Positions 1,645 to 62,423 of a DNA stretch of 64,000 bases are shown piece after piece. Origin of the DNA: Plasmodiophora brassicae (taxonomy: Eukaryota; Endomyxa; Phytomyxea; Plasmodiophorida; Plasmodiophoridae). Within the stretch, counting starts at the first letter, position 1; every line of letters begins with the position of its first letter. The stretch is from positions 124,001 through 188,000 of the forward strand of contig JASFAU010000010.1 in assembly GCA_039704465.1 (NCBI GenBank). The letters run 5' to 3'. The notes beneath the pieces were generated by a model that worked only from the letters and a program-made list of their open reading frames with translations, was not told where the DNA came from and made no database searches. A program made the translations under genes and the position numbers.

Positions 1645-3385
1645 ATGTCTGCCAGTGATGTTCTCTGCAAGGCCCTTGCCTTGTTTCGGATGTCGATCCT
1701 TCTGCTGGTTGTGCTCTGCCTGCTGTGGGTTCCGTCGGCGCCCGGTCCGCGGTTCGCAGCGGGCGCTCGCCACGAACTAGTGTTGCCGGAGCCATACTTT
1801 GATGTCGAATCAGAGCATTTGACTCTGTATGAGTGTGCTGGTACACGAAACGTGCCCCGCCTCAACGTAATAACCAAGTCCCCTGGTGACAGGGATTGGT
1901 CTCGCTGCCGTATCACCGACATTTCGGCAGGGATGTTCGACCAATGTCCTGATCTCACGAAACTGTACGTGTGCCGCGTCCCAGTACAATTCGCTAGTGG
2001 ACAACGGAAATGTGCGCAGGGACCTGCAAGGGAACAGGATAGCAACGATAGAGGCCGACGCGTTCCTTGGTCTGGATGACTTGGTCGATCTGTGTGTATC
2101 CGCAGGTGTCAAATTTTGTATGCGAACTGTCAGCTGAAGAAACGTGCACAGCGACCTGAAACAGAATTCGATATCAACGATAGCGGCAGATGCTTTCCGT
2201 GGCCTGAGCATGTTGGTCGATCTGTGCGTATTAGCGGGTGTACCATTTCGAGTGCACACTGTCAACTGAAAGGTGCACAGCGACCTGAAACGTAACATGA
2301 TATCAACGATACCGGACGGCGCTTTCGTTGACCTGCACCATTTGGATCAGCTGTGAGTATTCGCCCGTGTCCTATAATATCGAGGGCGAACTACTGAACG
2401 CTGTACGTCCAGTGACCTGTCGTATAACCGTCTTGTGTCCATCGGGCAACGAACTTTTCAAGGTCTATGCTCGCTGCGAACCGGCCTGTACGTTCAGCAT
2501 TGCCACGTATAGGGCGCCCTTTGGTCAAGCTCATTTCGTTCGGTACAGAGAATTGTACAACAACCGCATCGAGCACATTGCGGTATCGGCGTTCGAGAGT
2601 ATGCCGGATCTTATGCATCTGTATGTGTCAGGCGGTGCAACCGGGGACGAACAACCGAAACCTGTTTTAGGTGGCTGAGCAATAATGAAATCAAGTCAAT
2701 CAACAGGGGCATGTTTGCGGGCTTGACGTCGTTGGATGTGCTGTATGTCTAATTTATCGCCGTTGGTGACGTCCGGAATGGCCACTGAAGTCGCCAAAGG
2801 AGTCTGAGCAACAATCACATCACTGTCATTCAAGAGGGAGCTTTCGTCGACAATGGAAAGTTAAACGAATTGTACGTAGGGAATCACTTTCAGAACCGTC
2901 ATTGGTGGCTGAACATTGCACAGATATCTTAACAATAATGGCCTTGTATCGATTAAGAAGGGCATGTTCGATGGGATGCCCAAGCTGAAATTGCTGTATA
3001 TATGGATCCGGATCACAGCGCTGCTCCAAAGAGCCTAACTAGTTTATGCACAGAGATTTGAGTGGCAACCGTATCGAGGACATTGATGATGACGCATTCG
3101 CTGATCTGCCGTCCCTCTATGATCTGTATGCGTCGGCTTAATCAATTCATCATCGCATCATGCTCATATGCCGGCATTGCTAACGGCGTTTACAGTCGGC
3201 TGGACTACAATGTCAGTTGCAATTGGATTACCCCTGCTAACCCGGGAGGTTGGGGGATATTCCAGGCACAGCCAGCAACACACGCTTCAGTACTGGGCCG
3301 TAACGACCGCAGTTACCAGCATCATGACATGCACTCGCGACCGGGGTCTCCTGCTGGTTCGGACAATCTGCTTGCTGGAATATAA
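1645..3385 (+). CDS. LRR gene A: secreted leucine-rich-repeat protein, 10 LRRs
   Basis: Twelve exons. Exon 1 (1645-1826) encodes a signal peptide with the core MSILLLVVLCLLW. LRR exons are 1893-1964, 2020-2091, 2152-2223, 2281-2352, 2413-2487, 2549-2620, 2671-2742, 2800-2871, 2924-2995 and 3054-3125. All are 72 nt except the fifth (75 nt), and all introns are phase 2, splitting a Leu codon CT|N. A typical repeat reads DLQGNRIATIEADAFLGL. The last exon (3196-3385) starts with the C-cap RLDYN..CNWITP. Compared with LRR-B it then loses about 11-17 nt, so the conserved KRHWGIPDTATITC end is replaced by an unrelated 40-residue tail. The predicted protein is 364 aa, secreted and without a kinase. 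Its role is unknown; such LRR ectodomains usually bind proteins or glycans. Confidence 0.72.
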
Positions 3386-3859
3386 ACATTGTTTGCATTT
3401 TCGTTGTGCCTGCTTCCGTCATTATGTACCGTCATCGGTGGCGTCGACGTGTTGGCTGCCCGATACTGCAGCGCTGTACTCTGCGACGATCCGAAGCGCG
3501 CGCAGGCGTTGTCACCGAGAGAAACACGGACTTAAAAGTACAAGGGCAACCGGCATCACCGTTTGTGGTCGTTGAGAAAGGATCGGCTACATGGTTTATA
3601 ATTTGGGATTCAGCTGGGCGGTTCCATGACACTGCGGAAGGGCTTCTAGGAAGCCATTGTCCGATGTGGGAATCGGTACATCATCGGTCATCTTGTCCAG
3701 CTTCAGTTTGAGCATGGCGGTGAAGCCTGAACTCGGCAGCCATCTCGTCGACATCCGTCGGTCGGCATTCGGCGATCCCTGCGTTTTTCAACGACAGAAT
3801 GTCAGCCTGGAAGTTCTCCAGCGCCCTGTAGGTCCCTTATGCGATGCGGTGGGCCGCTG
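3386..3859. other. LRR-A 3' flank
   Basis: This stretch holds sequence related to the 3' flanks of LRR-B, -C and -D. One part could encode a short hydrophobic segment (NIVCIFVVPASVI), followed by a block like GATACAGCAGCGATGTACTATG seen in D. It may be 3' UTR, or it may hold an extra exon for a membrane anchor. No intact frame continues from the C-cap exon. Confidence 0.35.
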
Positions 3860-4605
3860 GCTCGGCAGGTCGAACCTGCTCTGCCCGGAACGAGAGCAAG
3901 CCCAAGGTGAAACACGTCAAAACAGAATCTGATCCTGGTGGCCAAAGCCGACCAGCCCGCCTCCAGCCCACGCGAATTCGGCGACAAGGGGGAGTTCATG
4001 CAGGCTGTAGAACGCTGAATGTCTGTAGGGTTGATCGTGCTGTGGGCTGACGGTGCCCCAGCGACAGTTGAACCCCCTGATCAGGACGGTGTTCCCGCAG
4101 CTGATGGCGTTCTACGACCTGTGCACGGACCCGAACCCGAAGCACACGAGAGCGCACAGCGACGTGGACCGAGTGTAAAAGGCGCTGCCGGTCGACTTGC
4201 GCTCGTACGTTGTGTCGAGAAGGGTCTCGTCGTTGTAGGGGATCGCCGAGCCGAGTATCTGGAGCTGTTCAACAATTTCCCTTCCTGCGCGCATGAAGAC
4301 AGGCGGGTCCCTGAAATCGGACAACGGCAAGTACGGAAGGCGGTCGTATCGCGCCATCCTGTCCATTCCGCCCCGAGCTTGAGTGTGCCGAGCGCCGAGA
4401 CCAGGGTCCAGGACATCGACTCCGTTGCCGGGTCGAGCGTGTTGCCCACGACCATCGACGTCATCAAGAGCGATACGAGCCTGTACCGCCTGCAAATTCG
4501 TTGATGACATGACCTGCCAGACGTGTGCGATCGTGCGCCGCCGGGATCACCCGGGCCGTCGTCAAAGATATGAAAGTCGTCTGGAAGCAAATGGATACCA
4601 CCTAG
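3860..4605 (+). pseudogene. RasGAP pseudogene (copy of the 3' half of the EF-hand/RasGAP gene)
   Basis: The sequence follows the intact gene at 17724-14726 from the stretch encoding GWVGMSNLL to the stop codon. About 35 nt that encode the FLRFVCP motif are deleted near 3878. The copy of the last intron is still present at about 4000-4070, so this is a DNA-level duplication and not a retrocopy. A stop codon lies at the place of RMSKA (GTG TAA AAG near 4176), and several small indels disrupt the rest. The terminal TAG is still recognisable at 4603. Loss of the Arg-finger-region partner motif FLR and the stops mean that no working GAP can be made. The 3' flank continues into the upstream region of LRR-B. 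Confidence 0.75.
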
Positions 4606-4650
4606 CCGATATTGACAGAGTTTACTCATCCGGTACACGTCGATCCTGTG

Positions 4651-4960
4651 TTATCTGCTTCCTAGGGCGGCTTGGGTAGCGCTGCCACCTGCCTGGGTAC
4701 ATGACGACGCTGCACATGATATATAGACATGCCATGCCGTCGGCACTCCACTGCCACTCGGCGCTCTCTGCATTCCTCGCAACAGCACGCGTACCCTGTA
4801 ATAGGCTTGTCTGTGCGAGTAATCAGTACTGACCTTCATGTCCGGCTTCGGTGGATCGAGCGTTTCACCCCGGCACGTCCGGAACCTGGGCTCGTGCTAT
4901 CCGCAGCGGAAGGGCTCATCTGCGTCGACATCGATGACGGTAAACGTCCTGGCTATACGA
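4651..4960 (-). other. Repeated upstream block with a conserved Cys-rich reading frame (copy 1)
   Basis: The segment is repeated at 14466-14650 and 28900-29150. On the reverse strand here, and in the matching strand of the other copies, one frame keeps a cysteine pattern: TGYACCCEEC then V.VECRR. In the other two copies it reads TGYACCPEGC and TGCACCCEEC. It lies upstream of LRR-B and on the opposite strand. Whether it is expressed is unknown; it could be one exon of a small gene or a chance open frame in a duplicated promoter block. Confidence 0.3.
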
Positions 4961-5059
4961 AAGGTGTGCGGATGCTGGGTAGGGTTACCGCATCAAGGCG
5001 GGCGGTCCGATCTGAATCCCCAGCCATGTCAAGCGGGCGAGTGCGCGCTCCTGGGCGCC

Positions 5060-5209
5060 TGTGTCCTGATTCGGACTCGTTTGGGCCCCGATTTCGACCT
5101 GGCCCGTGCCGCCGTGCCCTGCCCCGGTGGCTGGGCGGCCGTCGTCAATCGGGCCATAACGCCTTTTAAAGGACAGCGCTCGGACCCGCGACCGATTATA
5201 CCAGCCGTC
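5060..5209 (+). promoter_or_regulatory. Conserved 5' flank of LRR gene B
   Basis: Matches the flanks of LRR-A, -C and -D: a TGATTCGGACTCGTTTGGG block and GGCTGGGCGGCCGTCGTCAA before the ATG. It is a likely promoter or 5' UTR. No clear TATA element was seen. Confidence 0.4.
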
Positions 5210-6920
5210 ATGTCTGCCGATGATGTTCTCTGCAAGGGCCTTGCTGCGTTTCGGATGTCGATCGTTCCGCTGTTTGTGCTCTTCCTGCTGTGGATCCCGT
5301 CGCCGCCCGGGTCGCGGTTCGCAGCGGCCGATCGCGATGGCGCTCGCCGCGTACCACCTCGGCCGCAGCCTTACTTTGATGCCGAATCGGAGCATTTAAC
5401 TCTGTATGAGTGTGCTGGTGACGATACGTGCCCCGCCTCAACGTAATAACCAAGTCCCCTGGTGACAGGGATTGGTCTCGGTGCCGTATCACCGACATTT
5501 CGGCAGGGATGTTCGACCAATGGCCTGATCTCACGAAACTGTACGTGTGCCGCGTCCCAGTACAATTCGCTAGTGGACAACGGAAATGTGCGCAGGGACC
5601 TGCAAGGGAACAGGATAGAAACGATAGAGGCCGACGCGTTCCTTGGTCTGGATGACTTGGTCGATCTGTGTGTATCCGCAGGTGTCCAATTTTGTGTGCG
5701 AACTGTCAGCTGAAACGTGCACAGCGACCTGCAACAGAATTTCATATCAACGATAGAGGCGGGTGCTTTCCGTGGCCTGAGCGGGTTGGGCGATCTGTGC
5801 GTATTATAAGCAGGTGTACCATTTCGAGTGCGCACTGTCAACTGAAATGTGCACAGCGACCTGAAACGCAACAGGATATCAACGATACAGGACGGCGCTT
5901 TCGGTGACCTTGACCACTTGGATCAGCTGTGAGTATTCGCCCGTGTCCTATATCGAGGGCGAACTAATGAACGCTGTACGTCCAGTGACCTGTCGTATAA
6001 CCGTCTTGTGTCCATCGGGCAACGAACTTTTCAAGGTCTACAGTCGCTGTGTGACGCCCTGTATGTCCAGCACTGCCAAGTGCAGCGCGCCCTTTGGTCA
6101 AGCTCATTTCGTTCGGTACAGAGAATTGTACAACAACCGCATCGAGCACATTGCGGAATCGGCGTTCGAGAGTATGCCGGATCTTCTGCATCTGTATGTG
6201 TCAGGCGGTGCAACCGGGGACGAACAACCGAAATCTGTTTCAGGTGGCTGGCCAATAATGAAATCAAGTCAATCGACAGGGGCATGTTTGCGGGCTTGAC
6301 GTCGTTGGATGTGTTGTATGTCTAATTTATCGCCGTTGGTGACGTCCGGAATTGGCCACTGAATTCGCCAAAGGAGTCTGAGGAACAATCACATCACTGT
6401 CATTCAAGAGGGAGCTTTCGTCGACAATGGAAAGTTAATCGAGTTGTACGTATAGAATCACTTTCAGAACCGTCATTAATGACGGGCCAACGATATTGGT
6501 GGCTGAACATTGCACAGATATCTTGACAATAATGGCCTTGTATCGATTAAAAACGGCATGTTTAATGGAATGCCCGAGCTGACATTGCTGTATGGATCCG
6601 GATCACAGCGCCGCTCCATCGAGCCTAACTGGTTTATGTGCAGAGATTTGAGCAGCAACCGTATCGCGGCCATTGAATATGGCGCATTCGCTGATCTTGG
6701 ATCCCTCTCTGAACTGTATGCGTCGTCAGCTTCATCAATTCGTCATATCTCATTTCGCTCGTATGCCGGCATTGCTAACGACGTTTACAGGCGGCTCGAC
6801 TGCAATGACATTTGCAATTGGATTACCCCTACGGACCCGATAGGCCAACTTAAACGTCATTGGGGGATTCCAGACACAGCCACCATCACATGCTCCACTG
6901 GGCCGGCACGACTCCAATGA
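5210..6920 (+). CDS. LRR gene B: secreted leucine-rich-repeat protein, 10 LRRs, intact
   Basis: Best-preserved family member: 12 exons giving 348 aa with no stop or frameshift. Exon 1 is 5210-5403 (signal peptide, MSIVPLFVLFLLWIP core). LRR exons are 5469-5540, 5596-5667, 5725-5796, 5857-5928, 5986-6060, 6122-6193, 6244-6315, 6374-6445, 6518-6589 and 6644-6715. Nine are 72 nt and one is 75 nt, and all junctions are phase 2. The C-cap exon 6791-6920 encodes CNDICNWITPTDPIG then RHWGIPDTATITC and a stop. Introns are 50-75 nt. The protein is expected to be secreted, or anchored if a further 3' exon exists. It is closest to LRR-A, and the RasGAP pseudogene lies between them, so a block duplication is likely. 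Confidence 0.8.
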
Positions 6921-7279: not shown

Positions 7280-9463
7280 TCACTGGGCTTCATTGCGTGG
7301 CGATTCTTCCAGCAACGATGGCTCACTGGCGTCTTCGGGCGTCCACTCGAGAGGTTCCCGCTTCATGACTTCACGAAGAAACACGGTAGCGTAGGACGAC
7401 GATGGCAGGGAGAACTCGAGGCGTATCGCAACGTGGGCCCCGTCGGGAACCGACTCTGGCACGCCGGCGCCGCGCATCCGGTCCATATCGGTCAGCAGCA
7501 GCGGGGCCGTCTTGTCATCGTAACGGACAACGTCCCAGTTCATGTCCGTTGGCTTGACGACGACATGGCGGTACGCGCCACATGCGCTGAAATCCTTTAC
7601 GCGATGCTTCCACTTCTCCACTACGTTCCAGGACGTTAGTCGTACAGCATTCACACGAATACGAACACTGACACGATAGGTTGTGCTCTGCGAGCAGATC
7701 CATGCAATGCTGACCGACAGCGTTCCCGGGCAGCTTGATGTCATACCCTGGCAGAGGAAGAACGACATCCTCAATCGTGTACCGCTCGACGGAATCGGCG
7801 TCAAGAACAATGACGCTGCGCTCGCGCCTGTACAAATCACGGCGTCAGGGACGCCGAACGAACCAGGTAGGGCAAGAGACGCACGGATCCGATCCGTCGA
7901 GGACGAGGTCGCCGACAACAGGTCGTGTGCTGTCGAGCTCCTTCAGGCGGAACGTAGCGAGACGGTTCCAGATGGCACTCTGGAAGGCATGGACGTACAG
8001 GAGGCGCATATTACGTGGCAGGCTACAGAGCGCGTTCACGAACGCGTTCGGCGACTGTTCGAGAGATCGCAGAATTATTCGTTCGATAAGGTCCCTCGGT
8101 TGCAGCCGTTCAAGCGTCCCTAACCAGTGACAATGTCGGCGCCTTCACCGATACGAAGCACGCAATCGTACGAACCTTTGTAGTCGAACGATTCGCCAAA
8201 GTATTGCAAGGCGCTGCGAAGATGCTCTTGTTGGGAATCCTGCGGAACGAGAATCAATGACACAGCAAGGTCGAACCTAGACCATACAACGAATGAGAAA
8301 CTGCACGAAGCGAATATCGCAGCAGCCCAGACGTACCGCTCCTGCATGATGGCCATGCCAATCATGTGCGTCGACGCCGATCCTGTGCCGAATCGCTGCA
8401 ATCCGAAATAGTTCACGAACCCGGCCTCGCGGACGGCATTCAATGACGCGTCAACGGCGGTCATTTCAGCACCATCCTCCAGCTGGACATCACGCAGGAC
8501 AATTCCGAACCGATTGCCCTTCAGGCTGCCGAGCCTCGTGCTATCCTGGACGTAGCAGAAATTGCCCACACGAACGTCGTCTCTCAGGCGCGGCAAGCAT
8601 CGGGCAATGGTTTGGGCGTCCGCTTTGAACATCGTGATCAGCTGTGTCGTTATCGCACGCCGGTCCTTGTTGCCTGCGTACTCAATCCTGCGTCCCCCTA
8701 TCAGCATGCCGCCTGCACCAACGGCACCCCTCTTCACATACCTCTTCTCGCTGATGCCCGTCACCTGCGACAATGCATGGATGGCCTTCATGGTATCGAT
8801 ATTCGCCTTGTGCAGCGTCATCTGCAGGTACTTGCAGTCACCACCAGGCCAGTCGGCGTCCCGATTCTTGAACGCGCTCGATGCCGATGGCCGCCCCAGC
8901 GAGACGCGGATCTCGCGATGCCCGTCTTCGGACGTCACCGTGTGGGAGAACACGCCACCTTCTGGGATGCGCTTGATCAACGCGTGGACAGCAGTCCGCT
9001 GCTCTTTGTCGTCAAAGACGCCCAGCGTCATCTCAGGAACATTCTTTCTATCAGCAGGCGGTTCCTGCGACACGAACGCTCGTAGCGCGTCGACATCGAC
9101 ATACTTGCGAAGGTCCTCCCATGCGTCGGGCGGTTCCTCGTCGGCTTCGGCAGCCGGCACCTCATGTTTCGGGACATCGAACGATGTCAAATGCACCACG
9201 TTGCCGTTTAGGTCAATCTCGTTGACGATGAAATCGGAATACCGTTGTTTCACGGCAGCAGCAAGCGCCGGCCCAGGGCATCGCAGCAGCTCAATGCCAA
9301 CATCGGCCCATTTGGCACGCAGCGACGTAATCATGCAGCGGCATTCCTCCAGCGCCTTGTCCAGCGATTTCGAGTCGCATGGTTCGTCGAGTCGTGGCCG
9401 GACGGATCTCGCGTGGCCCTGCTTGCGGGTTCGGGGCGGCCCCGCCCGCTTCCCACGAACCAT
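7280..9463 (-). CDS. PUS7: tRNA pseudouridine synthase, TruD/Pus7 family
   Basis: Converts uridine to pseudouridine in tRNAs, and in eukaryotes also in some mRNAs and U2 snRNA. The long first exon (9463-about 8140) carries the catalytic motif AGNKDRRAITTQ (Asp of KD) and the family motif NYFGLQRFG. Downstream exons encode LPRNMRLLYVHAFQSAIWN, RYTIEDVVLPLPGYDI and the C-terminal LEFSLPSSSYATVFLREVMK, ending at a stop at 7280. At least three introns are needed: around 8130, around 7850-7820, and 7693-7640, where the frame resumes in EKWKHRVKDF. The one near 8130 looks only about 30-35 nt long. The start at 9463 is the first true ATG (MVRGKRAG); an earlier in-frame GTG is not used. Confidence 0.92.
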
Positions 9464-9638
9464 TGGCCTGAACTGCAGCCGTGCCACGGACTGCGCGGAT
9501 GACCCTGCACGCAGCGAGGCCTGAGGCCCCCTTTCGGCATATATAGCACTGTTGCAACCGCCAGGCGATTGAGATACCTATGTAGAACGAATTGGATCGC
9601 GACCTGGTACCCAGGTTAGGCGCAGTGATAAGGCGGCC

Positions 9639-11146: not shown

Positions 11147-12331
11147 TCACTGGACGGGTGGAATGGCGCACGTGATGATGGTTGTGTCTGGAAGCCCCCA
11201 AGCACGTCTAAGTTCGCCACTGGGACCAGCAGGGTCAATCCAATTATTGCAAATGCCATTGTTGTCGAGCGACCTGTACACGCCGTTAGCCGCCCTGGCA
11301 GTCGAGCTGGTTGAAAAGCAGACTCATACAGTTCTTTGAGGGATACAAGATCATCGAATGCGCCATCGTCAATAGTCTCGATAAGGTTGTCACCCAAATC
11401 TCTGCATAAATAGCAAGGTAAGTGACCGTTCCGGACGTGCACGTTTCAGTTGACAGTCCGCATTAGAAATGGGACATTTGCGAATACACACAGCTCGTCC
11501 ACGCTGTCCAGGCCGAAGAAAGCACGGGACTGTATCGTTTGTATCCAATTCTGTTGCAGGTCGCTGTGCACATTACTTTCAGTTGACCGTTTCGCACCCC
11601 ATACTGGACACATGCGAATACCCACAGCTTGACCAAGTAGTCCAGTTCACGGAAAGTACCGAAGTGTATCGTTTGTATCAGATTCTGTTTCAGATCGCTG
11701 TGCACATTTCAACTGACAGTTAGCACTCGAATGAGGCACCTGCTGATACGCACAGATCGACCAAATTTTCCAGGCCAATGAAAGCATCCTCATGCACCGT
11801 TTGTATACGATTCTCCTTCAGGTCGCTGTGAGCATTTCAGTAGACATCTCCGTACGCGAAATGGTACACCTGCGAATACCCACAGATACTTCAAGTCTTT
11901 CAGGCAACGGAAAGCATAGGCTGGAATTGTTTCTATCTGATTGCTTTCCAGGATACTGTGCACGTTTCAGTCGGCGACGAGCGAAAACGCACTGTGGCGC
12001 GCGCGGCACACGTACAGTTGCGTCAGATCAGGCCATTGGGCGAACATCGTGCCCGAAATGGCAGTGATATCGCACTGCGACCAGTCGCTATTACCATGGC
12101 ACGGTCAGTACGACAATACGGGACACGTATCATCGCCTACAGAATGATATCGTCATCGCTATCCAAGTAAGGCTCTGGCAACACAAGTTCGTGGCGAGCA
12201 CGACGGCGATCGGCCGCTGCGATCCGCGGACCGGGTGCCGCCGGGACCCACAGCAGGCCGGGCAGAAACAGCAGAACGATCGACATTCGAAACGCAGCAA
12301 GGGCCTTGCAGAGAACACCCGCAGCAGACAT
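11147..12331 (-). CDS. LRR gene C: secreted leucine-rich-repeat protein, 6 LRRs, intact
   Basis: Eight exons giving 249 aa with an intact frame. Exon 1 is 12331-12141 (signal peptide core MSIVLLFLPGLLWVP). LRR exons are 12087-12016, 11955-11884, 11825-11754, 11697-11626, 11563-11492 and 11401-11330. Each is exactly 72 nt and all junctions are phase 2. The C-cap exon 11273-11147 encodes SLDNNGICNNWIDP and AWGLPDTTIITC, then a stop. It has four fewer LRR exons than A or B, and the losses are whole exons. Introns resemble each other (for example ...CTGAAACGTGCACAG), which shows that exon and intron were copied together. It lies on the same strand as the intact RasGAP gene, mirroring the RasGAP pseudogene/LRR-B order. 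Confidence 0.8.
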
Positions 12332-14465: not shown

Positions 14466-14650
14466 ATGAATGATGTGCAGGAGCCGGATTTGCAGGTCAG
14501 TACTCGCACAGGAAGGCCGGTTACAGGGTACGCGTGCTGTCCCGAGGGTTGCTGCGAGCACCCAGTGGCAGCAGAATGCCGACGAACACGACATGCCTAT
14601 CATATCAGGTGCAGCGCCGTCATGTACCCAGGCAGGTGGCAGCACTAGCC
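14466..14650 (+). other. Repeated upstream block with a conserved Cys-rich reading frame (copy 2)
   Basis: A 60-codon ORF starts at ATG 14466 and contains TGYACCPEGCCEHPVAAECR and RCSAVMYPGR. The matching strand at 4651-4960 and 28900-29150 encodes a similar Cys pattern. It lies just downstream of the RasGAP stop, on the opposite strand. The pattern is conserved although the DNA has diverged, but only three copies are available and expression is unknown. Confidence 0.35.
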
Positions 14651-14725
14651 GAGCCGCCCTGAGAAGCAGGTAACCCTGGTACCGACTATTACCAGACGAC
14701 TATACAATTGGGAGCGTAATATCGG

Positions 14726-17724
14726 CTAGATGTCGTGTTGCTTCCAGTCGGCCTTCATATCGTTGACGACGGCCTTGTGATCCCGGAGACGCGCGATCCA
14801 CGTCTGGCAGGTCACATCATCGGCGTATTGCAGGCGGTGCACGCTCGCATCGCTCATGACGATTTCGATGGTCGTGGGTGACGCGCTCGACACGGCAACG
14901 GCGTCGATGTCCTCGACCCTGATCTCGGCGCTCGGCACATTCAAGCTCGGGTTCGCGGCGGCCGCCTTGTATAAGAAGACGCTGTCGTGCAGAACGGACA
15001 GGATGGCGCGATACGACCGTCTGCCGTACTTGACGTTATCCGATTCCAGGCACCCGCCTGTCTTCGTGAGCGCATCCGGGAAGTGGCTCAACAGCTCCAG
15101 GTACTCGGCTATACGCGCCAGCGACGAGATCTTCCTTGTCACGACATACGATCGCACGTCGACCCGCAGCGCCTTTGACATTCGGTCCACGTCGCTGTGC
15201 GTCCTCGTATGTTTCGGGTTCGGGTCCTTGAACAGGTCGTAGAACGTCGTCAACTGCGGGATCACCTTCCTGATCAGCGGGTTCAACTGTCGCCGGGGCA
15301 CCGTCAGTCCACAGCACGATCGACCCAAACAGACACTCAGCGTCCTACCGCCTGCATGAATTCCTCCTTGTCGCCGAATTCGTGCAGGCTGGCGGCGGAC
15401 TGGACGACTTTGGCCACCAGGATCAGGTTCCGTTTGCACTGTTTCGTCATGGGCTTGCTCTCGTTCGGGAACGGGGCCACGATCGTTGGGCAGACGAACC
15501 TGAGGAACAGCAGGTTCGACATGCCGACCCAGCCGCTGCCTTCGAACTTTCTCTCGATGGCCGAATGCACGACCCGGCACATGACGGTGAACGTGGTCGG
15601 CACGTCGGCCACGACCGCTCTGAGCAGGTCGGCGCTGGCGTTGCACAGCGCCTTCAGGTTCGCGCGTCGCTGCTTGGCGCTCGTCTCGACCTGCGGGTCG
15701 ATCTCGAACGAGACCGCCTCGCTGGACGCGATGATCTTCCTGAGCACGGCCAGGACCTGCGCGTGGATGTTCTGCCCGAACGCCCGGGCGCATAACGTCA
15801 GCATTCGTGTGACCTGCGTGTTCTTCCTGAACAGGTCGGCCGACGCGTGGATGTCGGCCAGTTCGCGGTCCAGGGCGGGCCCCAGCACCTTCAACAGGAG
15901 CGACTCGTTGCGGAACAGGTTGACCGTCGAGAAGATGAGCGTGTTGGACGCGTCGGACGGGATGCCCGCGATGCTGTTGATCCGCCCGTCCATGATCGTC
16001 GTGACGAACAGGTTTGGGTCGCGTTCGATGCGCTGGAACAGGTCCGGTAGGTGACCGCTCCGGATGATCGTGTCGTTGATACAGCCGACCACCATCCTCG
16101 GGTCCATCGTTGCGTCACCATCCTGCTCGTCGTCGTCGCTGGCGTCCTCCGACGTAGCCGGCGCCGGGTCATCCCTGGTCTTGTCGTCATCCTCGGCCAG
16201 TTTCTTCGCCGTCATCGTGTTCTCAATGCTGAGGGACACGTGCCCGATGGAGGACAGCGTTGCCTCCTCCCAGACGACGTTCGGCTCCTCGAGGTAGACA
16301 TCGGGATCGTCGAGCACGCCGTTCTCGAGGATCGGGACCGGCAGGCGCCCTTGGTCCAGGGTCCGGTTCTGGATGCGTCGCATCTTGTACCGAAGGGCGA
16401 TCGCTGTTCGAGGCGACACGGGCGGCTGCGGTGACGACGACGATGCGTGCGCGTCGTCGAGCACGGGCATCGACCAGGGCACGATCGCCACCGTGAACGG
16501 CCCACACCCGCAGCGATCGACTGCTAGTACCCAGTACAGCAGTAGTACGAACGAGCCAGATGGATTGTGAATCTTCCACTCCCCCGGACAGGGGGTTGGT
16601 GCACCACTACAGCAACAATGTGTATCTACATGGGGCCGAGCTGGTACGAGCTGGCCGGTGCGTTCTTTGGCATGTACCTGCGAGGACCAGGGCGTGAGCA
16701 CCTCCGGGTACCGTCCGACGCGGACGACTGACATGGCCGTGTCGCAGTCTTCATTGTCGGTCAGCTCGTCCTCATCGCCGCTCGAAAACGCGTCCTCTTT
16801 CTCGACGACGACCTCGATCCCGTCGAATGCGATCTTCGCGTGCGCGTTATCCTGTCGCGCGTTCGTTAGCGATCCACATGCTGGGGGTCATTCGACCCAG
16901 GTAGAGCATCGGGTCACCTGGATCTTGAACTTCTCCTGGTCGTGCTTGCGCAGGTTGACGGCCGCAATGGACTTGTTCGTTCGCTGTTTGAGGAACGGCA
17001 GGCAGGTGATGACGAGGTCGTGGGCCGCATGGCTCAGCTCGACGATCTGCTGCCGGATGTCGTCGGCGATGCCGTCATAGTAGTGGTTCTCGAGCTCGGG
17101 GTGCACGCGCACGAACAGGTCCTCCCAGAACCGGATGCCCAGGACCGCCGTCTGGACCTTGATCTGCAATTCGAACATGGGCCAGACCAGGATCGGGTAG
17201 TAGTCCTTGGCCATGCGGAACTCGAGCAGGTCGAGCTTGCCGTCGTGCTTCTCGTCGTACAGGTCGATGGCCTTCTCGACCGCCAGCGGGAGCATCGAGT
17301 CGTGGCCGTGCGACGCCTGCATCAGCGCCACGAGGCTGTCGCCGGCCACGTACCCGGTCGAGTTCGTGTCGTACATGGAGAACATGAACTCGACGAGGCG
17401 GTCGTACGTGTACAGGTTGATCCTGGCCATGGCCGTCAGCCATTCGTAGAAGTTCCACAGCTGGTCCTTGTCGGTGTCCAGGTAGTCGAACACCAGGTCG
17501 AGGAACGGCGACCGGCGCAGGTTGATGTGGTTGAAGAGTTCGTCGCAGGAGACGGCGCCCTTGCCGGCCGTGTCCATCGAGCAGAACACCTGGAACAGGC
17601 GCTGTAGTTCGACATCGGTCAGCTGCATCTCCTCGGCGAGGTCGCGCAGCGCATCGGTCAGCTCGAACGTCGCCTTCGCCTGCGACAGGCAGCAGCAGCA
17701 GCAGCAGCACAGCCAGCGACACAT
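14726..17724 (-). CDS. EF-hand / RasGAP fusion protein
   Basis: Two open stretches usually read as separate genes join cleanly. The EF-hand exon (17724-16918) ends ..KFKIQ at CAG|GTGACC. A 66-nt intron with GCTAAC and a final ACAG follows (16917-16852). Exon 2 then continues in frame as DNAHAKIAFDGIEVVVEK. The N-terminus is MCRWLCCCCCCC, followed by four EF-hand-like units (MDTAGKGAVSCDEL, LDTDKDQLWNFYEW, YDTNSTGYVAGDSL, YDEKHDGKLDLLEF). The RasGAP domain in 16734-15350 has the signature FLRFVCPTIVAPFPNE. The last intron is 15349-15287, and the final exon 15286-14726 ends WKQHDI. RasGAPs switch Ras-type GTPases off; an attached EF-hand module suggests calcium control, which is inference. A further intron in 16676-16500 is possible, although the frame is open through it. 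Confidence 0.72.
17687..17712 (-). repeat. Short CTG/CAG repeat encoding a cysteine string
   Basis: About seven TGC triplets on the reverse strand encode seven consecutive cysteines right after MCRWL in the EF-hand/RasGAP protein. Cysteine strings near an N-terminus are often palmitoylated for membrane anchoring. It may also be a slipping repeat. Confidence 0.6.
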
Positions 17725-19103: not shown

Positions 19104-21202
19104 ATGCGCGCATGCCTGCGCTGGTTGTCGACGATGGTGACGGCGCGCAAGGAGTTCGACCTGGCGCTGCAGTCGGGCTGGAACATCGACCTGGCGGCGT
19201 CGGCGTTCACGCGCCTGGCCGCCTTCAGCGGCGCCACGCACGACGATTTCGACCGGCTCCTGAGCGCGTGCATCACCGTTGGCGGCTCCTATCACCATAT
19301 CCAGCACGCCTTCTCGGAGCACGCCAGCAAGGTCGTGCCGAGGCCCGCATCCGTCCACCTGGTCGCCGCGATATACGGGAAGCTGACCCGGGCGGCGATA
19401 CCAGACGTGCCGCATCCCGTCATCGTTGCCGTTGACCGCGGGTGCCGTCCGCATCGCGACACCGTCGACCTGGCGCTTCGACATTTACTTCAGTTGCGCG
19501 ATCAGCAACGGGTCCGTCGTCTCCTGTGCCAATGCCACGATTTGCAATTGTCGCCATCCACCGCTCTATGGAACATGTAGGACGGACGGTCCCGCCCCCC
19601 CGAGACACTGGACGCGTATGCTAACGTTTCCTCCTGTACTGCAGGGCCATTCTGGTCGTGTGCCAGGCACCCGACGCCGACCAAGACATCGTCGGCCTGT
19701 ACCGATGGATCCTGGGGCGCGGCGCCGTCCTGCGCGACTCGCTGACGAAGTGCATCCTGGCGCTGATCGCGGGCGGCCGTATCCATGCCGCCCATCAAGT
19801 GTTCCTGACCGTTTGCGAGCGCCTGAACGTTCAGGCGCGTGCTCGACGCGCGCTCTACGATGCGTTGCCCGACCCGTCGTCCGCCTGGGCGCTGTTCATT
19901 CGCGACCGCGCCAACGGGTCCAAGTCGATGGTACCGACGGGCATCCGCCTGTGCGTTCTGACCGGGCGCGACGCCCTGGCCAGGCGGGCGTACCGCCACC
20001 TGGATCAGCATTTCGGCGAGAACGAGGTCAAGGGTGCGCTGAACGCGCTCATCTCGAAGCTGTGCCCCGGATGGGAGGCCGGCCGATGGGCGCAGTGGGC
20101 CCTGGAGGCCCGGGTGCCACTCGCCAGAGCGTCCCTCGAGCACCTGTTTGCTATATGCCAAGACGACCTGAGACTGTCGCCGCTGCTCGCCTTTGAGTGC
20201 CTAAAGGAAGGCGCAACCGCCAGCGACGCGATCGTGCCATTGTTCCGGGCCGGCGGGATGTTCGGCAACCCTCGCGCTGCCCTGCGTGTCCTGGGCGTTA
20301 TGACGGCCACGTATCGTGCGCGCCTCACCGAGGTCTATGGGAACGCGTGCAATGGCCTGGCTGTGGAATACCTGCTCCGGACGGGCGCCAGTGCCGTTAT
20401 GTACGAGGTGGCTGCCCGGATGGCGTTGCGTCTGGAACCCCCCGCCGACTGGGCCGCAGCGACCCGAGCGTGCCTGGACCGCATGCGTCGCGCCCAGGTC
20501 CCCGCGTCCACCGATCTATGGCGGGCCATCGCTCGCGTCTGTATCAGACGGGGCGCTCTGGACGCCCTGTTCGAGTTGCGAACGGTCTACGCTGCTGGCC
20601 GTTGCGACCTGCCGTTCCTGTTCACGAAGCCGGTGCGAGTCCTGTTCCGATGCGGCAGATACCGGGACGTCATCGCACAGATCCAGGCCATGGTGTCGTC
20701 GGGTTACACGAACGCGCTTCGCAAGGCAATGGTTCGTCGCGCGGGCCTGGTGTCCGCGTTGAAAACGGGCCTCCTGCAACCGTGTGAACCGGGGCCGTTC
20801 ATGGGCGTCCACCTGAGGCGGACGCTGATGATGATGCTGCCGCCGCCGTCCGCCGAGCACGTGAGGATGCACGCGACGGCAGCGCTCAATGGCACCATGG
20901 GCGTTCGCTTCCTGAACGACCTGATTTGGCAGCTTGGGCGCCTGCACCTGCCCGAACGGGACCGTCTGCAGCGATCGCTCGACCTGCTGTTCGTATTCGT
21001 CTCGGGGTCGCCTCGACGACCGCACCCGTACACGCTGATGGCCGTGCTGTGGTGGTGCGTCAAGGCGCGCGATGTCGGCAATGCCGTGCGCGTCCTCGAG
21101 CTCGCCGTCGAACGCGACATCCGCATCCCTGACAAGAAACTGGGGCGTCTTCTCTGCAGAATGCCTGAGCTGGAACACGCTATAATACTGCCTCGCAGAT
21201 GA
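19104..21202 (+). CDS. Pentatricopeptide-repeat-like helical protein
   Basis: Two exons, 19104-19576 and 19645-21202, give 676 aa. The 68-nt intron has GTAGGAC at its start, TGCTAAC as branch site and CTGCAG at its end, and joins LWNM to AILVVCQAPDAD in frame. The protein is built almost wholly of amphipathic helix pairs of about 35 residues (for example ALFELRTVYAAGRCDLPFLF, VIAQIQAMVSSGYTNALRKA), as in PPR proteins that bind organelle RNA. The N-terminus (MRACLRWLSTMVTARKEF) is basic and could be a mitochondrial presequence. Motif scores cannot be computed here, so a related alpha-solenoid family is possible. Confidence 0.6.
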
Positions 21203-21500
21203 CGCCAACGCGCTCCCTAGCTAAACCCTTCCCATGAATCTATCTGTTACCAACCGACACGGCCTGCATGGGTACGTACAGGTAGCCATCCGAGACAAGT
21301 GTCCCAGCGTCGAATGCCTCGGCGTGGGTCTCATACGCGAACGGGCCAGGTGCTCCGAACCACTGGACGCCTCGCCCCGACGCCGATTGCGCGAAGACGA
21401 CCGAGACAGGCGTAAGTCTATCGGGGGTCACCCTTTCTATCTGCATGGCGAAGTGCGCGCACCTGGAAGTTCCTGTGCCTGGGTGGGCGGACCTTGATGT
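21192..21500. repeat. Duplicated segment, copy 1 (partner 28218-28530)
   Basis: About 300 bp starting at the last codons of the PPR-like gene (GCAGATGACGCCAACGCGCTCC) recur at 28218-28530 with substitutions and an indel. On the reverse strand both copies keep an ATG-started frame beginning MQIE, then DRLTPV.VVFAQSASGR. In copy 1 it runs on as FGAPGPFAYETHAEAFDAG. I do not know the product. Confidence 0.6.
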
Positions 21501-22433
21501 TCTCGCACCTGAGAGGGAAAGCAGCACGCTGACCGTCATTGTCGGCCATTGTCTGACGTTAGCGCCGTCTAAGGTTCCTAGTAGAATGGACGAGGTGCTC
21601 ATATTTGCCGTTCGCGTCGCGTTAATACTCGTTCCCGGATACGCAACGTATTGCACGCTGCCGAACGGGTGCATTTGTGATTGGTATCCGACCGCATGCC
21701 AGTCCAACAGCACATACATGTACGTCCTGCATCTTAATGTCACACCGACGTACGTCGTCGGCCAATTAGGATTGACGTCAGATCATTAAACGCCCAGTCA
21801 TCCGTGGGTGGTATGTTGACCAGCGCTTGGTTTGACATGTCGTCCCGGTCGTCTATCACCTATGTGTAACCGCCAGCCTGCGTCTCGTGTTGCTGGGATA
21901 GTGATCCCTGATGTCGTCAGGTCAATCACGTACTGTAAATTAACTGGCATCGATAACGGCACGTTTGCGGGCATGTCGGCGCTAACCACTCTGTACCAAA
22001 CCTGTCCAGTGCCATGTGCCCCATGCCGACCTCATGATGGGTACAGGTTGCTGAATGGTAACTGGATCACGTCGCTGCCAAGCTCACCAGTGGCGTTCGC
22101 GAGCCTGACCAATCTGCACGTGTTGGACCTGGAAACGAACTCGCTCACCTTCCTGCCCGAACGTCTGTTTGCCCCGTGTACATCGCTGACATATTTGTAA
22201 GTCTTCGCAGTCAGTGACGGTCATGCTTATTCGTGATCATCGCAGCAACTTCGGCGTTAATTATCTGACGTCGATACCCACGAACGCCTTGTCAACCCTG
22301 AGCCAGCTCACTTTTTTGTCCGTTGGGCATCTGTTCTCGCCAGCTTCCTGATGCGAAATTCTGGTCGCAGGAATTTCGGAACGAACTCGATCCAAGCCAT
22401 CGAACCAGGCACGCTCCAGGCCCAGTCTCTCCT

Positions 22434-24481: not shown

Positions 24482-25989
24482 GTACTTGGACAGAAACCCG
24501 CCGCTTGCATCCCTCCCTGATGGACTCTTCGACCATTGTACATCGCTCGGACGCCTGTTCGTCTTCGGTCCCGTTACTTCTCTCTCAGGTCGACGTGTTG
24601 CTAATTGTATGCACACAGGGCGATTCACGCCTGCCCCTTGTTGATGCGCCTGCCCTTCAACATTTTCCGCAACGCGGTTATGCTGACCGATGTCACGTAT
24701 GGCCACTGTGCCTGCCGGTCTGCCTACCACTGACGCTTGTGTACCTGCAGGACATATAGGGCACCAGAGCAGATTGTGTGCTGGCCGAAACCACCTCCTT
24801 CAGCGATCACCGGATACAGTACGAACTTGTGTGCCCCTGGCAAGTTTCGCTCCGTACCTCAAAGCGATGTATCTGAACGACGGGTTGCATGGGCAGATGA
24901 CTCCAGTGCAATGTTCGGAACCGCTGTGCAAGACGAGTACTTATCGCTATTCTGTAAAGCGCCCGCCGTCATATCGAGCGTCGTCTTCGCGTCGTTCGGC
25001 ACCCCGTCGGGGCAATCAGGCGTCTACACTCTCGGATCGTGCAACTCCATCAAAAGCGTGCCTGTTGTCAGACAGACCTGCGTGAACAAGACGTTGTGCA
25101 TCATAACGGCGTCCACTTCGACATTCGGGTCGGATCCCTGTCCGGGTACCACCAAACAGCTTTCAGTTGCCGTCAACTGCACCGCTCTTCCCAAATTGCC
25201 CTCGACAAAGACCCGTCGCATGTCAACATCGACCAGGAAGGCGTCGACGACGAGGCGACTCGGCTCCAAGAAGACGTCGTCACTGAGGACACGCAGTTCC
25301 CGGAAGTCGAGAACGGTGAGAGCATCCACGTTGTGGTCCAAAGAACCGGCGCCGCCGTCCACATCTGATCGTGTGTCGACAGCCGGGCACAGTCATAGGG
25401 CGTCTCTGTCCAGGTCAACGTCAGAAGCACGTACGACGACCACCCGTCGCCACCTGCCTTCAGCAGACCCTCCGTCTCCGTCACAGCAGGATCTCAGCCA
25501 CTGGGTTACCGATCGCGCGACGCTCGTGGTGTTCATATTAGCCGCCGTTGGCGTCGGCATCCTATGCATTGCCGTCGTCGTTTCCATTTGTGCCTGGAGG
25601 CGCCCAGCTCCGATGCCAGGTTCCCCGTTGGCAACACCCGTTGCCCCATTTACTGCTTTAGCACCACACCCAATTTCGAATCAGCATGCACTGGCGCCTC
25701 CGGTCATGCACCAGCCTTTTCAGTACCCCCCTCCGACATTGTCAAGCACGGCCGGCATGGCACCGCGGACGGGCGCCAGCCAACGCTTGCGCCCACGTCG
25801 GGTGGAGGCTCGTGACAAGTTCAACCAGGGTGCCATGACGACGATGTCAACGACGTCGGAGAGTGAACCGGAAGCCTTGTAGTTGCCGCTGCACGTCCAC
25901 GACGCGTCATTAAAGATGTTGCTGGGCGACGATCTGCAATCTATATGTCGTGCCTGGACGTCAGATTCGCCGGCCCAGGTGGGGCGGTT

Positions 25990-28217: not shown

Positions 28218-28530
28218 TCGCAGATGACGCCAACGCGCTCCCTAGCTAAATCCTTCCCATGAATCTATATTTTACCAACCGACACGGCCTGTATAGGTGC
28301 CTACAGGTAGCCATCCGAGGCCAGTGTCCCCCACGCTCGTCGAAAGACGTGCCGAGGCGTCGAATGCCTCGGGGCGTGGGTCTCATACGCGAACGGGCCA
28401 GGTGCTCCGAACACGCACCGGCTCGCCCCGACGCCGATTGGGCGAACACGACCAAGACAGGCGTAAGTCTATCGGCGGCCACGCTTTCTATCTGCATGGC
28501 TTAAGTCGTCGAGTACAGCTGTAAGGAGCT
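28218..28530. repeat. Duplicated segment, copy 2 (partner 21192-21500)
   Basis: Begins GCAGATGACGCCAACGCGC, the same as the end of the PPR-like gene, and abuts the broken transposase. Compared with copy 1 it carries an extra stretch near 28340-28370 and a 1-nt difference near 28410 that shifts the conserved reverse frame, so at least one copy is non-coding. Confidence 0.6.
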
Positions 28531-29407: not shown

Positions 29408-31517
29408 ATGTCTGCTGCTGCTGCTGCTGTTCTCTGCAAGGCTCTTGCTGCATGCCGAATGTCGATCGTTCTGCAGTTAGTGTCCTGCCTGTTGTGGATC
29501 CCGACGTCAGCGCCCGGAACGCGGTTCGCAGCGGCCTTCCGCCTTCCCGTTCGCTGCGGACCAGTGGCTGACGATGGCGTTCTGTATGCAACAATACGTG
29601 TCGCGTCTTGGCCTATACTAACCATGCCCTGGTGATAGGGATTGGAGTGATCGCGGTATCACTCACATTTGGCCAGGGATGTTCGCCCACTAACCGTGAT
29701 CTGCCCGACGGGCGCACTATCGAAAATTGCGACTGTGCCCCCCCGACATGTGCGACTTTTGGGCCCTCGCCACGCCGTATGTTATGGCACGGCCGCGACG
29801 GGGGTCGCGCAGCCGCGCAGTTTGAATAAACGTCCACGGCAACCGACGGCTTCGGCAGTCCAAATACACGATAGATTTGATGTCTTAAAATGCCTATTAC
29901 TCCCTAATTGTCACAGCGCACGTTCCCCTAATTGTCACAGCGCACGTTCCCCTAATTGTCACAGCGCACGTTCCCCTAATTGTCACAGCGCACGTTCCCT
30001 AATTGTCACAGCGCACGTCCCCTAATTGTCACAGCGCACGTTCCCTAATTGTCACAGCGCACGTTCCCCTAATTGTCACAGCGCACGTTCCCCTAATTGT
30101 CACAGCGCACGTTCCCTAATTGTCACAGCGCACGTTCCCCTAATTGTCACAGCGCACGTTCCCTAATTGTCACAGCGCACGTCCCCTAATTGTCACAGCG
30201 CACGTTCCCCTAATTGTCACAGCGCACGTTCCCCTAATTGTCACAGCGCACGTTCCCCTAATTGTCACAGCGCACGTTCCCCTAATTGTCACAGCGCACG
30301 TTCCCCTAATTGTCACAGCGCACGTTCCCCTAATTGTCACAGCGCCAGTGTCTGTTGGGCAGTTACGGACTGCGCCAGTCGGGCAGTTCTGGGGCAGCTG
30401 CGGGGCGGCTGATCGGTTATATACCAATATCATACTGTGACGGCAATGTACGTGTGCAGCGCCGCGGTACGTTTCGCCGTCGCCAAACTAAAATGTTCAC
30501 AGCAACCTGGCAAGCAATCAGATATCATGTCTAGAGGCCGGTGCCTTCGAAGGACCATACACGTTGATGAGGCTGTGTGTGCTATTTGGACTTCGATCGG
30601 TTGTGCATTGCTGAAGGCTGTACGTCCAGTGACCTGTCTCATAATTGTCTGGTGTCCATCGAGCGAGGAACGTTCCAAGGTTTACGTTCACTGCGCCACC
30701 TGTACGTTCAGCGTTGTCACGTACAACGTTGCATCCTTCGGTCAAGTTCGCCTGTTGCGGTACAGAGTGTTGAACCATAATGCCATCCAGCGCATTGCGG
30801 AATCGGCGTTCGAGGGTTTGTCCCAGCTTGAGATGCTGTATGTGTCAGGTGGCACGTACCACCCAGGCGAGCCACCTGATTCTGTTTCAGGAAGCTGATC
30901 GACAGTGAAATCGGATCAATCGCCAGGGGCATGTTTGCAGGCTTGACGTCGTTGCGTCATCTGTATGTTGAATTTACCGCCGTTTGTGATGTCCGCAATT
31001 GATCTCGCGCGCCAAAGAGTTCTGAGCAACAATCGTATTACGCTCATCATTCAACAGGGAGCGTTCACCGCGACTAACAATTTACGCAAGTTGTGGGTAC
31101 AGAATGATTTACAGAAACGTCATCAGTTGTTGAATATTGCACAGACGGCTTATCAATAATGGCCTCGTATCAATCGGAAACGGCATGTTCGATGGGATGC
31201 CCTATCTGGAGACCTTGTAGGGATCCGGATAACGGCGCCGTTCCCAAAGCTAACTGGTTTGTATGTACAGAGATTTGGATTTCAACCGTATCCAGACTAT
31301 TGAAGAGGGCGCGTTCGCTCAGCTTGTATCCCTAAAAGAGCTGTATGCCTCAGCTATCTCAGTCAGCTCAACTGATGGAATCCCTGACGACCTGAACAGG
31401 TTGCTCAACTACAATGACATTTGTTACGATGAGATGAACCCTGTTGAGCTCAGTGGCGTTCTTAAACGTTATTGGGGGCTTCCAGACACAGCCATCATCA
31501 AGTGCGACACCGATTGA
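29408..31517 (+). pseudogene. LRR gene D: first LRR broken by stop and minisatellite, seven downstream LRR exons intact
   Basis: Exon 1 (29408-29583) encodes the signal peptide (MSIVLQLVSCLLWIP) with a short poly-Ala run from a CTG repeat. The next LRR exon (from 29640) has an in-frame TAA and a 1-nt shift, and is followed by the minisatellite. Downstream LRR exons are 30503-30574, 30630-30701, 30766-30837, 30891-30962, 31018-31092 (75 nt), 31145-31216 and 31271-31342. The C-cap exon 31400-31517 ends RYWGLPDTAIIKCDTD. All are open and phase 2. Because exon 1 also ends in phase 2, splicing from 29583 directly to 30503 would give a 266-aa protein with seven LRRs. Whether that happens is unknown, so pseudogene is a cautious label. 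Confidence 0.6.
29902..30345. repeat. Minisatellite, 19 copies of a 24/25-bp unit
   Basis: The unit begins CCCCTAATTGTCACAG and ends CGCACGTT; some copies have three Cs instead of four, or one T fewer. I counted 19 copies of the core TAATTGTCACAGCGC. Copies are nearly identical, which points to recent expansion. The array lies in the damaged exon 2 to intron region of LRR-D. Confidence 0.95.
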
Positions 31518-37026: not shown

Positions 37027-37245
37027 GCCCTTGACGACGACCCAGCGCCCGGCGATACGGCGCCGCCCCGCCCGGATATGCAACAGCGGCTCCGCTCTGA
37101 TGAGAAGGCGGCGAATCGCCAAAACTGGGCGTCGCCAGACGGCGTCCGGCTACGGTTTTCGCGTACGGACGCGCGTGCCGTGCGGACGGAGCCGGTGGCG
37201 GTGAGGCCCTCGAAACCAAATCGGCAGTTGACGACGGGGTCGGGA

Positions 37246-43000: not shown

Positions 43001-43366
43001 AGCGACGTGACGTGCCCTGTGTGGTCTACCTACCGGACGTGAACATCAGGTCAGCGGGGATGCGCGTCGGGGATCGCCATGGTCGTCGTAGTGGTACGCC
43101 AATCCCGGCTCACGCTGGCTTGCCCGACAGTCTGGCCCGCCAACGACGGCAATTGACGATGGGCCGGTGGCCGCTTGCCAGGCCCGGCGCTGGTGGCCAC
43201 AGGGCGCGTGACCGTGGGGGCGCTATCAATAGACCGGTGCTGCACCATCGGGGTCCCCGTTGTCGACTGGCGGTTGCAGCCCTGCCTCTTTGGCTTCGTG
43301 TGCGGCGGGCGGGTACCGCATTTGGACCATTAGTTGGGAACCTTCCCGCGCGGACGGCCTCGGCGG

Positions 43367-62109: not shown

Positions 62110-62423
62110 GGTTCGATCGGCCGCGGCCGCCGCCGGACTCCTCCCTGCGCCTGGCCCTGCCGTGCCCGGGATCGACGACCGACGGCAAACGCGGCGGCGA
62201 AACTTGACCCCCTCCCCAAAAAAACGCAATTAAAAAACAGTCGCCGGATCTCGAACCGTCTCGAATCCGTCCACACCATTTTGCGTCATGCGGTGCAAAT
62301 TCCGGTCGGGTCGGGCGCCCCAGTGGAGGTTGAGGGGGAATCGGCAGCAGGGGGCGGCGGCGGCCGTGTCGGCACCGGCGGGAGACGACGTGACGGGGGC
62401 CGGCGGCGCGTCCCGTGGGCGCC

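What the first reader, a model, noticed from the sequence alone, without database searches (positions are those of the whole stretch)
1645..6920. LRR genes built as one 72-nt, phase-2 exon per repeat
In LRR-A and LRR-B every 24-residue leucine-rich repeat is exactly one exon. Each exon starts and ends in phase 2 (the Leu codon CT|N is split) and is followed by a 50-75 nt intron with GT/AG ends. The exons are symmetric, so any number of them can be added or lost without a frame change. ORF callers shatter these genes into meaningless pieces, so the family may be missed in annotations. LRR-B is fully intact with 12 exons and 348 aa.
Basis: seen in the sequence. Interest (0 to 1): 0.9.

Follow-up and report, generated by a model that had tools for sequence, protein, structure and literature searches.

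The report
One-repeat-per-exon LRR genes in clubroot parasite
The clubroot parasite builds secreted-looking leucine-rich-repeat proteins from short interchangeable exons, one per repeat, a design already described for plant receptor genes, and related copies have gained or lost whole repeats without breaking the protein frame.

Summary
LRR-B (5210-6920) reads as 12 exons, 348 aa: nine of ten repeat exons are 72 nt, one is 75; all 11 introns are 50-75 nt, GT-AG, phase 2. The genome is Plasmodiophora brassicae: a database protein of that species (P0001) equals seven spliced exons of another gene in the window. The design is wider: in 24 LRR-selected regions plus the window, 153 of 202 repeat-like stretches have AG exactly before and GT exactly 72 nt on; other offsets give 0-3. 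Arrays reach 14 exons. Five paralogues hold 3, 3, 4, 1 and 1 copies of one repeat slot, and one lost a block of exons, leaving a chimaeric intron. Structural residues of the spliced frame are constrained. The kind is known: rice LRR-kinases have 72-nt phase-2 exons splitting the same leucine (PMC3050792); brown algae have 72-bp LRR exons (PMC11378527). My searches listed no account of it in Plasmodiophora or Rhizaria. New member of a known kind; transcripts and function untested.

The parts
5210..5403 (+). LRR-B exon 1: start codon, hydrophobic N-terminus, ends in the split Leu codon
5469..5540 (+). LRR-B exon 2, 72 nt
5596..5667 (+). LRR-B exon 3, 72 nt (slot 3, copy 1)
5725..5796 (+). LRR-B exon 4, 72 nt (slot 3, copy 2)
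5857..5928 (+). LRR-B exon 5, 72 nt (slot 3, copy 3)
5986..6060 (+). LRR-B exon 6, 75 nt (the one exception)
6122..6193 (+). LRR-B exon 7, 72 nt
6244..6315 (+). LRR-B exon 8, 72 nt
6374..6445 (+). LRR-B exon 9, 72 nt
6518..6589 (+). LRR-B exon 10, 72 nt
6644..6715 (+). LRR-B exon 11, 72 nt
6791..6920 (+). LRR-B exon 12: Cys-containing C-terminal cap and stop
1645..3385 (+). LRR-A, 12 exons: 1645-1826, 1893-1964, 2020-2091, 2152-2223, 2281-2352, 2413-2487 (75 nt), 2549-2620, 2671-2742, 2800-2871, 2924-2995, 3054-3125, 3196-3385 (frame differs from LRR-B's cap)
11160..12331 (-). LRR-C (approximate span, ends read by eye): repeat exons 12087-12016, 11955-11884, 11825-11754, 11697-11626, 11563-11492, 11401-11330, all 72 nt; slots 6-10 absent
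11402..11491 (-). LRR-C chimaeric intron: 5' 55 nt like a slot-3 intron, then about 20 nt like intron 8; 3' end unassigned
29408..31517 (+). LRR-D (database protein P0001): exons starting 30503, 30630, 30766, 30891, 31018 (75 nt), 31145, 31271 give P0001 residues 84-251 letter for letter; exon 2 is interrupted by an insert here
21921..22317 (+). three repeat exons (72, 75, 72 nt) of another subfamily, resembling exons of locus L047 on contig C17

Best explanation
LRR-A and LRR-B belong to a Plasmodiophora brassicae family of extracellular-type LRR genes built from a 72-nt phase-2 exon that carries one solenoid turn, cut in the middle of one concave beta-strand and ending in the middle of the next. 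Splicing joins a signal-peptide-like N-terminus, n repeats and a C-terminal cap; no kinase or other domain was seen in LRR-B (shown from sequence; transcripts not seen). Because every junction is phase 2 at the same residue of the repeat, recombination between introns can add or remove whole turns in frame (gain and loss shown by comparing five paralogues; the recombination itself is inferred from copied introns and one chimaeric intron). The product is most likely a secreted binding protein whose concave face varies between the older copies; that it acts outside the parasite cell, possibly towards the plant, is inferred. Rough likelihoods: spliced as modelled 0.97; exon gain and loss 0.9; secreted recognition or binding protein 0.7; role towards the host plant 0.4.
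For: Gene models; LRR_8 E=6.6e-95; P0001, an independently deposited P. brassicae protein, agrees with the exon edges of LRR-D (168 of 168 residues over seven exons). Exact-edge test 153 of 202, against 0-3 at other offsets; donor consensus; 28 arrays of 3-14 exons with 176 exons: 72 nt 153, 75 nt 11, 144 nt 11, 78 nt 1; 69, 141 and 147 allowed and not found. Exon tree: exons 3, 4, 5 of A and B, four of C, D3 and E3 form one supported clade (97/93). Exon+intron units repeat at 129/132 nt. C's chimaeric intron: slot-3 score 35 (maximum of 200 shuffles 12), intron-8 score 15 (maximum 12). Structural positions, Fisher on rounded site counts: A-B 1 of 148 nonsynonymous sites changed against 34.5 of 340 elsewhere (p=7e-5), B-D p=5e-9, D-E p=4e-5. 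Concave positions change more than other exposed ones in D-E, B-D and B-E (p=0.001, 9e-7, 0.002). AlphaFold2 of P0001: nine strands, each centred on a split-codon residue.
Against: No transcript was seen. A-B gives no sign of diversifying selection (concave against other p=0.85; dN 0.081, dS 0.092), nor does B-C (p=0.19); exons of A and B are not more alike than their introns (92.1% against 94.6%, p=0.065), as relaxed constraint would also give. High concave rates in D-E and B-D come with high synonymous rates at few concave sites, so saturation or conversion may contribute. In the exon tree slots 7, 8 and 11 are not resolved as clades and E2 is a long branch. Intron likeness is not confined to slot 3: introns 6 and 9 of LRR-B reach 80% in gapped alignment. 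LRR-A's last exon and LRR-D's exon 2 are altered, so some copies may be dead. No signal-peptide predictor was available.
Confidence: 0.82

Rival explanations
1. LRR-A and LRR-B are recent relics: tandem copies of a formerly functional gene, no longer under selection, whose exon pattern is a fossil.
For: Exons are not more conserved than introns between A and B (92.1% vs 94.6%, p=0.065) and dN/dS is near 0.9; LRR-A's last exon has left the family frame; LRR-D carries an insert in exon 2.
Against: LRR-B has 12 intact exons and 11 GT-AG introns; structural residues are spared between A and B (1 of 148 vs 34.5 of 340 sites, p=7e-5).
Confidence: 0.15
2. The exon pattern was taken over from the plant host: an LRR receptor gene with the same 72-nt phase-2 exons moved into the parasite and expanded.
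For: Rice LRR-kinases have the same exon length, phase and split leucine (PMC3050792), and this parasite lives in plant roots.
Against: None of the 20 repeats of LRR-A and LRR-B has a G at position 9, where I recall the plant GxIP signature (listing); the named hits of LRR-B that I saw are animals and protists, no plant (120 of 352 hits listed, many unnamed, names cut). No kinase domain in LRR-B.
Confidence: 0.05
3. Tandem repeat artefact: the chain of AG and GT edges is chance in repeated DNA and the genes are not spliced this way.
For: Within A and B the repeat units are related by duplication, so their edges are not independent.
Against: 153 different exon sequences from 19 of the 25 sequences scanned share the edges; unselected donor positions carry a consensus; the database protein P0001 agrees.
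Confidence: 0.01

Closest known systems
Plant LRR receptor kinases (rice LRR-kinases, PMC3050792)
   Same: 72-nt phase-2 exons, one repeat each, usually splitting the first Leu of xxLxLxx; also 144, 78 and 75 nt exons; exon duplication and shuffling proposed (abstract and discussion passages; section 6)
   Different: Plant genes carry kinase domains and (recalled) the GxIP repeat class; LRR-B shows neither. Rice also has 69- and 66-nt exons; 69 was not found here and 66 was not scanned for
Brown algal LRR-ROCO genes (PMC11378527; Zambounis 2012 not held)
   Same: 72-bp exons called phase 2, one LRR each, shuffling, concave-face variation (section 11)
   Different: ROC-COR GTPase; their positively selected concave sites are 14, 16, 18 and 19 of the exon's 23 residues, while here the concave residues are 22, 23, 1, 3 and 4, so the cut lies elsewhere in the repeat (inference from their numbering)
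Tetrahymena 90-bp-exon LRR genes (PMC6564038)
   Same: arrays of equal exons with phase-2 introns (passages)
   Different: 90 bp, another repeat length
Vertebrate gonadotropin receptors / LGRs
   Same: phase-2 LRR exons, as told in a passage of PMC11378527; LGR4 is among the PDB matches of LRR-B by sequence and of the P0001 model by fold
   Different: no seven-helix membrane domain in LRR-B
P. brassicae secreted LRR proteins (PMC4471660, PMC12503489)
   Same: secretome enriched in LRR domains; 19 LRR proteins counted, five induced in planta (passages)
   Different: the passages I read do not describe exon structure; I could not tell whether LRR-B is among those proteins

Membership tests
one-LRR-per-exon genes as in rice LRR-kinases | 72-nt exons, one repeat each | tested here: met
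   9 of 10 in A and in B; 153 of 176 exons in 28 arrays
one-LRR-per-exon genes as in rice LRR-kinases | phase 2, splitting the first Leu of xxLxLxx | tested here: met
   exon ends CT 125, TT 21, AT 7 of 153
one-LRR-per-exon genes as in rice LRR-kinases | kinase domain | tested here: not met
   Pfam scan of LRR-B: LRR families only above cut-off; other arrays not tested
one-LRR-per-exon genes as in rice LRR-kinases | plant-specific repeat class (GxIP, recalled) | tested here: not met
   0 of 20 LRR-A/B repeats with G at position 9 (listing); among 153 exons S, T, A or V there in 112 (that set was chosen by a score that favours the other class)
brown algal LRR-ROCO | ROC-COR domains | tested here: not met
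brown algal LRR-ROCO | same cut in the repeat | tested here: not met
   comparison with site numbers in PMC11378527 section 11; inference, no algal sequence was aligned
typical extracellular LRR protein | LRR_8 solenoid | tested here: met
   for LRR-B; AlphaFold2 model of paralogue P0001, Foldseek hits to Nogo receptor and LGR4
LGR-type receptor | seven-helix domain | tested here: not met
   the LRR-B product ends at the cap
P. brassicae secreted LRR candidate | signal peptide, no membrane helix | tested here: inconclusive
   hydrophobic N-terminus seen by eye; no predictor at hand
P. brassicae secreted LRR candidate | expression during infection | not testable with these tools
   no transcript data held

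The most novel reading that the evidence does not exclude
P. brassicae holds a genome-wide store of exon-shuffled, secreted LRR binding proteins, diversified on the concave face by in-frame gain and loss of single-turn exons and perhaps by alternative splicing, using the very exon cut reported for plant receptor kinases. The shared cut in plants and a rhizarian would then be either a relic of an ancient one-turn exon or a striking convergence.
Probability: 0.25. Interest if true: 0.7.

Novelty: new member of a known kind. Interest (0 to 1): 0.42.

Why it matters
It extends one-repeat-per-exon LRR genes, reported from plants, brown algae, ciliates and vertebrates, to a rhizarian parasite, and shows at sequence level how turns were gained and lost between sister genes. 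The cut is the one reported for rice receptor kinases and not the one inferred for brown algae, so the age of the one-turn exon becomes testable. It also suggests that LRR counts for this pathogen may be too low where small exons are missed.

Tried and rejected
Plant-to-parasite transfer: considered, not supported by repeat class or by the named hits seen. Chance edges: rejected. Diversifying selection between A and B: tested, not seen. NCBIfam scan of P0001: four matches, all far under their cut-offs, uninformative. The P0001 model (16-row alignment) is of low confidence at both ends. The passages of PMC11863921 proved irrelevant; those of PMC8286064 say only that LRR repeats of LGRs are usually coded by single exons. 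A paper search on each-exon-encodes wording found nothing. Zambounis 2012 is not held. My notebook says 29 arrays; the listing has 28. In one search the scanner takes LRR-D exon 9 as 72 nt, P0001 shows 75.
Full report
What is there. rebuilt the two genes from the window. LRR-B has 12 exons between 5210 and 6920 and gives 348 aa with no internal stop. Nine of its ten repeat exons are 72 nt and exon 6 is 75 nt; the 11 introns are 50-75 nt, start GT, end AG and lie in phase 2. LRR-A (1645-3385) has the same layout; its last exon departs from the frame of LRR-B's cap. The spliced LRR-B product matches LRR_8 at E=6.6e-95, and only LRR families pass their cut-offs.

Whose genome. The window is part of a 25.34-Mb, 21-contig assembly. 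The best hit of LRR-B is P0001, a 305-aa protein that a source names 'unnamed protein product (mitochondrion) [Plasmodiophora brassicae]' (45% identity over 94%). P0001 belongs to LRR-D of this window: seven spliced exons give its residues 84-251 in 168 of 168 positions. Published figures fit: a 25.5-Mb draft genome and introns averaging 60 bp (PMC4471660, start of abstract and passages).

More than chance. I scored every 24-residue window in 24 fetched regions plus the window with a handmade LRR score; 202 passed. Of these, 153 have AG directly before and GT directly 72 nt after; with both edges moved together to 30 other offsets the number is 0 to 3. Of the remaining 49, 20 have only the AG, 20 only the GT and 9 neither; 9 of the 20 AG-only windows are followed at once by a second scoring repeat, as in two-repeat exons. 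Outside the window the figure is 124 of 170. So this is not a genome-wide rate. LRR hits inside long open frames also exist, for example 518 aa on contig C14. Donor positions +3 to +6 show GTAYGT though only GT was asked for; CTRAY branch-like motifs occur in 39 of 101 introns (10% after shuffling; 5 of 153 exon interiors); intron lengths are spread evenly modulo 3. The longest has 14 exons in a row (L054).

Gain and loss of turns. Five close paralogues were compared: A and B, C (minus strand, about 12331-11160), D (29408-31517) and E (locus L053, contig C10 about 198,430-199,850, minus strand, ends read by eye). In a tree of 40 exons, exons 3, 4 and 5 of A and B, four exons of C and one each of D and E form one clade (97/93). 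Slots 2, 6 and 9 are also supported clades, slot 10 weakly (83/87); slots 7, 8 and 11 are not resolved, with only 72 columns and 18 of 37 inner branches open. So one slot holds 3, 3, 4, 1 and 1 copies. Exon and intron were copied together: direct repeats are spaced 129 and 132 nt in A and in B, and introns 3 and 4 of LRR-B are 82% identical against a mean of 70% for its other intron pairs, though introns 6 and 9 reach 80%. LRR-C lacks slots 6-10; the intron at the join begins like a slot-3 intron (score 35, maximum of 200 shuffles 12) and goes on like intron 8 (15 against 12); its 3' end is unassigned.

Selection. Between A and B one of 148 nonsynonymous sites at structural positions changed, against 34.5 of 340 elsewhere (p=7e-5); B-D and D-E agree (p=5e-9, 4e-5; Fisher on rounded counts, 75-nt exons left out). 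The frame made by splicing is therefore the frame that selection saw. Concave positions exceed other exposed positions in D-E, B-D and B-E (p=0.001, 9e-7, 0.002) but not in A-B (0.85) or B-C (0.19; pairing of C's slot-3 exons nominal). Few synonymous sites fall in the concave class, and those are also much changed. A-B overall gives dN 0.081 and dS 0.092, and exons 2-11 (92.1%) are not more alike than introns (94.6%, p=0.065), so recent relaxation in A or B is not excluded.

Structure. AlphaFold2 of P0001 is confident through the repeats (197 of 305 residues at pLDDT 90 or more) and shows nine strands 24-25 residues apart. From the exon lengths the residues with split codons are 59, 83, 107, 131, 155, 179, 204, 228 and 252, the centre of each of the nine strands. 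One exon is thus one turn, cut strand to strand. Foldseek's first eight PDB matches are Nogo receptor chains, the ninth LGR4; by sequence the best PDB match of LRR-B is the IGF-binding complex acid labile subunit.

How it works, most likely. A signal-peptide-like exon, a run of one-turn exons and a cap exon are spliced into a secreted solenoid. Recombination in the short introns changes the number of turns with no frame penalty. Binding to some ligand by the concave face is inferred from the fold and from the variability in the older pairs. A role towards the plant is a guess backed only by published enrichment of LRR proteins in the secretome and by five of 19 of them being induced in planta (PMC4471660 and PMC12503489, passages).

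Known or new. Rice LRR-kinases have 72-nt phase-2 exons that usually split the first Leu of xxLxLxx, and also 144, 78 and 75 nt exons (PMC3050792, section 6): the same architecture, without the kinase here. Brown algal ROCO genes have 72-bp exons with one LRR each, but their concave sites (14, 16, 18, 19 of 23) imply another cut (PMC11378527, section 11). Tetrahymena has 90-bp phase-2 exons (PMC6564038, passages). Searches for the pattern in Plasmodiophora or Rhizaria listed no paper whose title or abstract start describes it, and the passages I read in four of the listed papers (PMC4471660, PMC12503489, PMC5772912, PMC11378527) do not; most subscription journals and all preprints are outside that library. 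The finding is a real, well-supported new member of a known kind.

Annotation. LRR-D is annotated. LRR-B was not found beyond the 202-aa frame of the window itself (120 of 352 hits listed), nor were the L046 arrays within the length limits. Proteins of other lengths would have been missed.

Noticed in passing
window about 29692-30427: LRR-D exon 2 is interrupted by an insert of about 0.7 kb (edges read by eye) holding a run of 23-24-nt tandem repeats (about 29901-30343); the database protein P0001 has this exon uninterrupted, so intact copies exist.
   Followed up: partly
P0001 residues 272-305; window 30340-30441 (-): The C-terminus of P0001 differs from LRR-D here and matches a repeated element at ten listed places in the genome, one of them inside the insert of LRR-D.
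   Followed up: partly
window 3920-4821 and 14501-15435: A second inverted duplication (81-88% complementary in pieces) has one arm between LRR-A and LRR-B and the other beyond LRR-C; the overlapping 15337-16734 frame has a RasGAP domain.
   Followed up: no
window 21193-21449 and 28218-28500: Direct repeats of 92% and 91% identity seven kb apart, not identified.
   Followed up: no
L046 (contig C8:1113500-1122500): Four arrays of 7, 10, 13 and 9 repeat exons in a row, apparently tandem LRR genes; after the third array a cap-like exon and a new signal-like start can be read by eye.
   Followed up: partly
window 60661-62229 (-), 24737-25882 (+), 43334-44758 (+), 36226-38076 (+), 8120-9487 (-): Other genes by Pfam: an uninterrupted LRR frame (LRR_4/LRR_6), a SUEL lectin, a PHO4 phosphate transporter, a Pex2/12-RING protein and a TruD pseudouridine synthase.
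   Followed up: no
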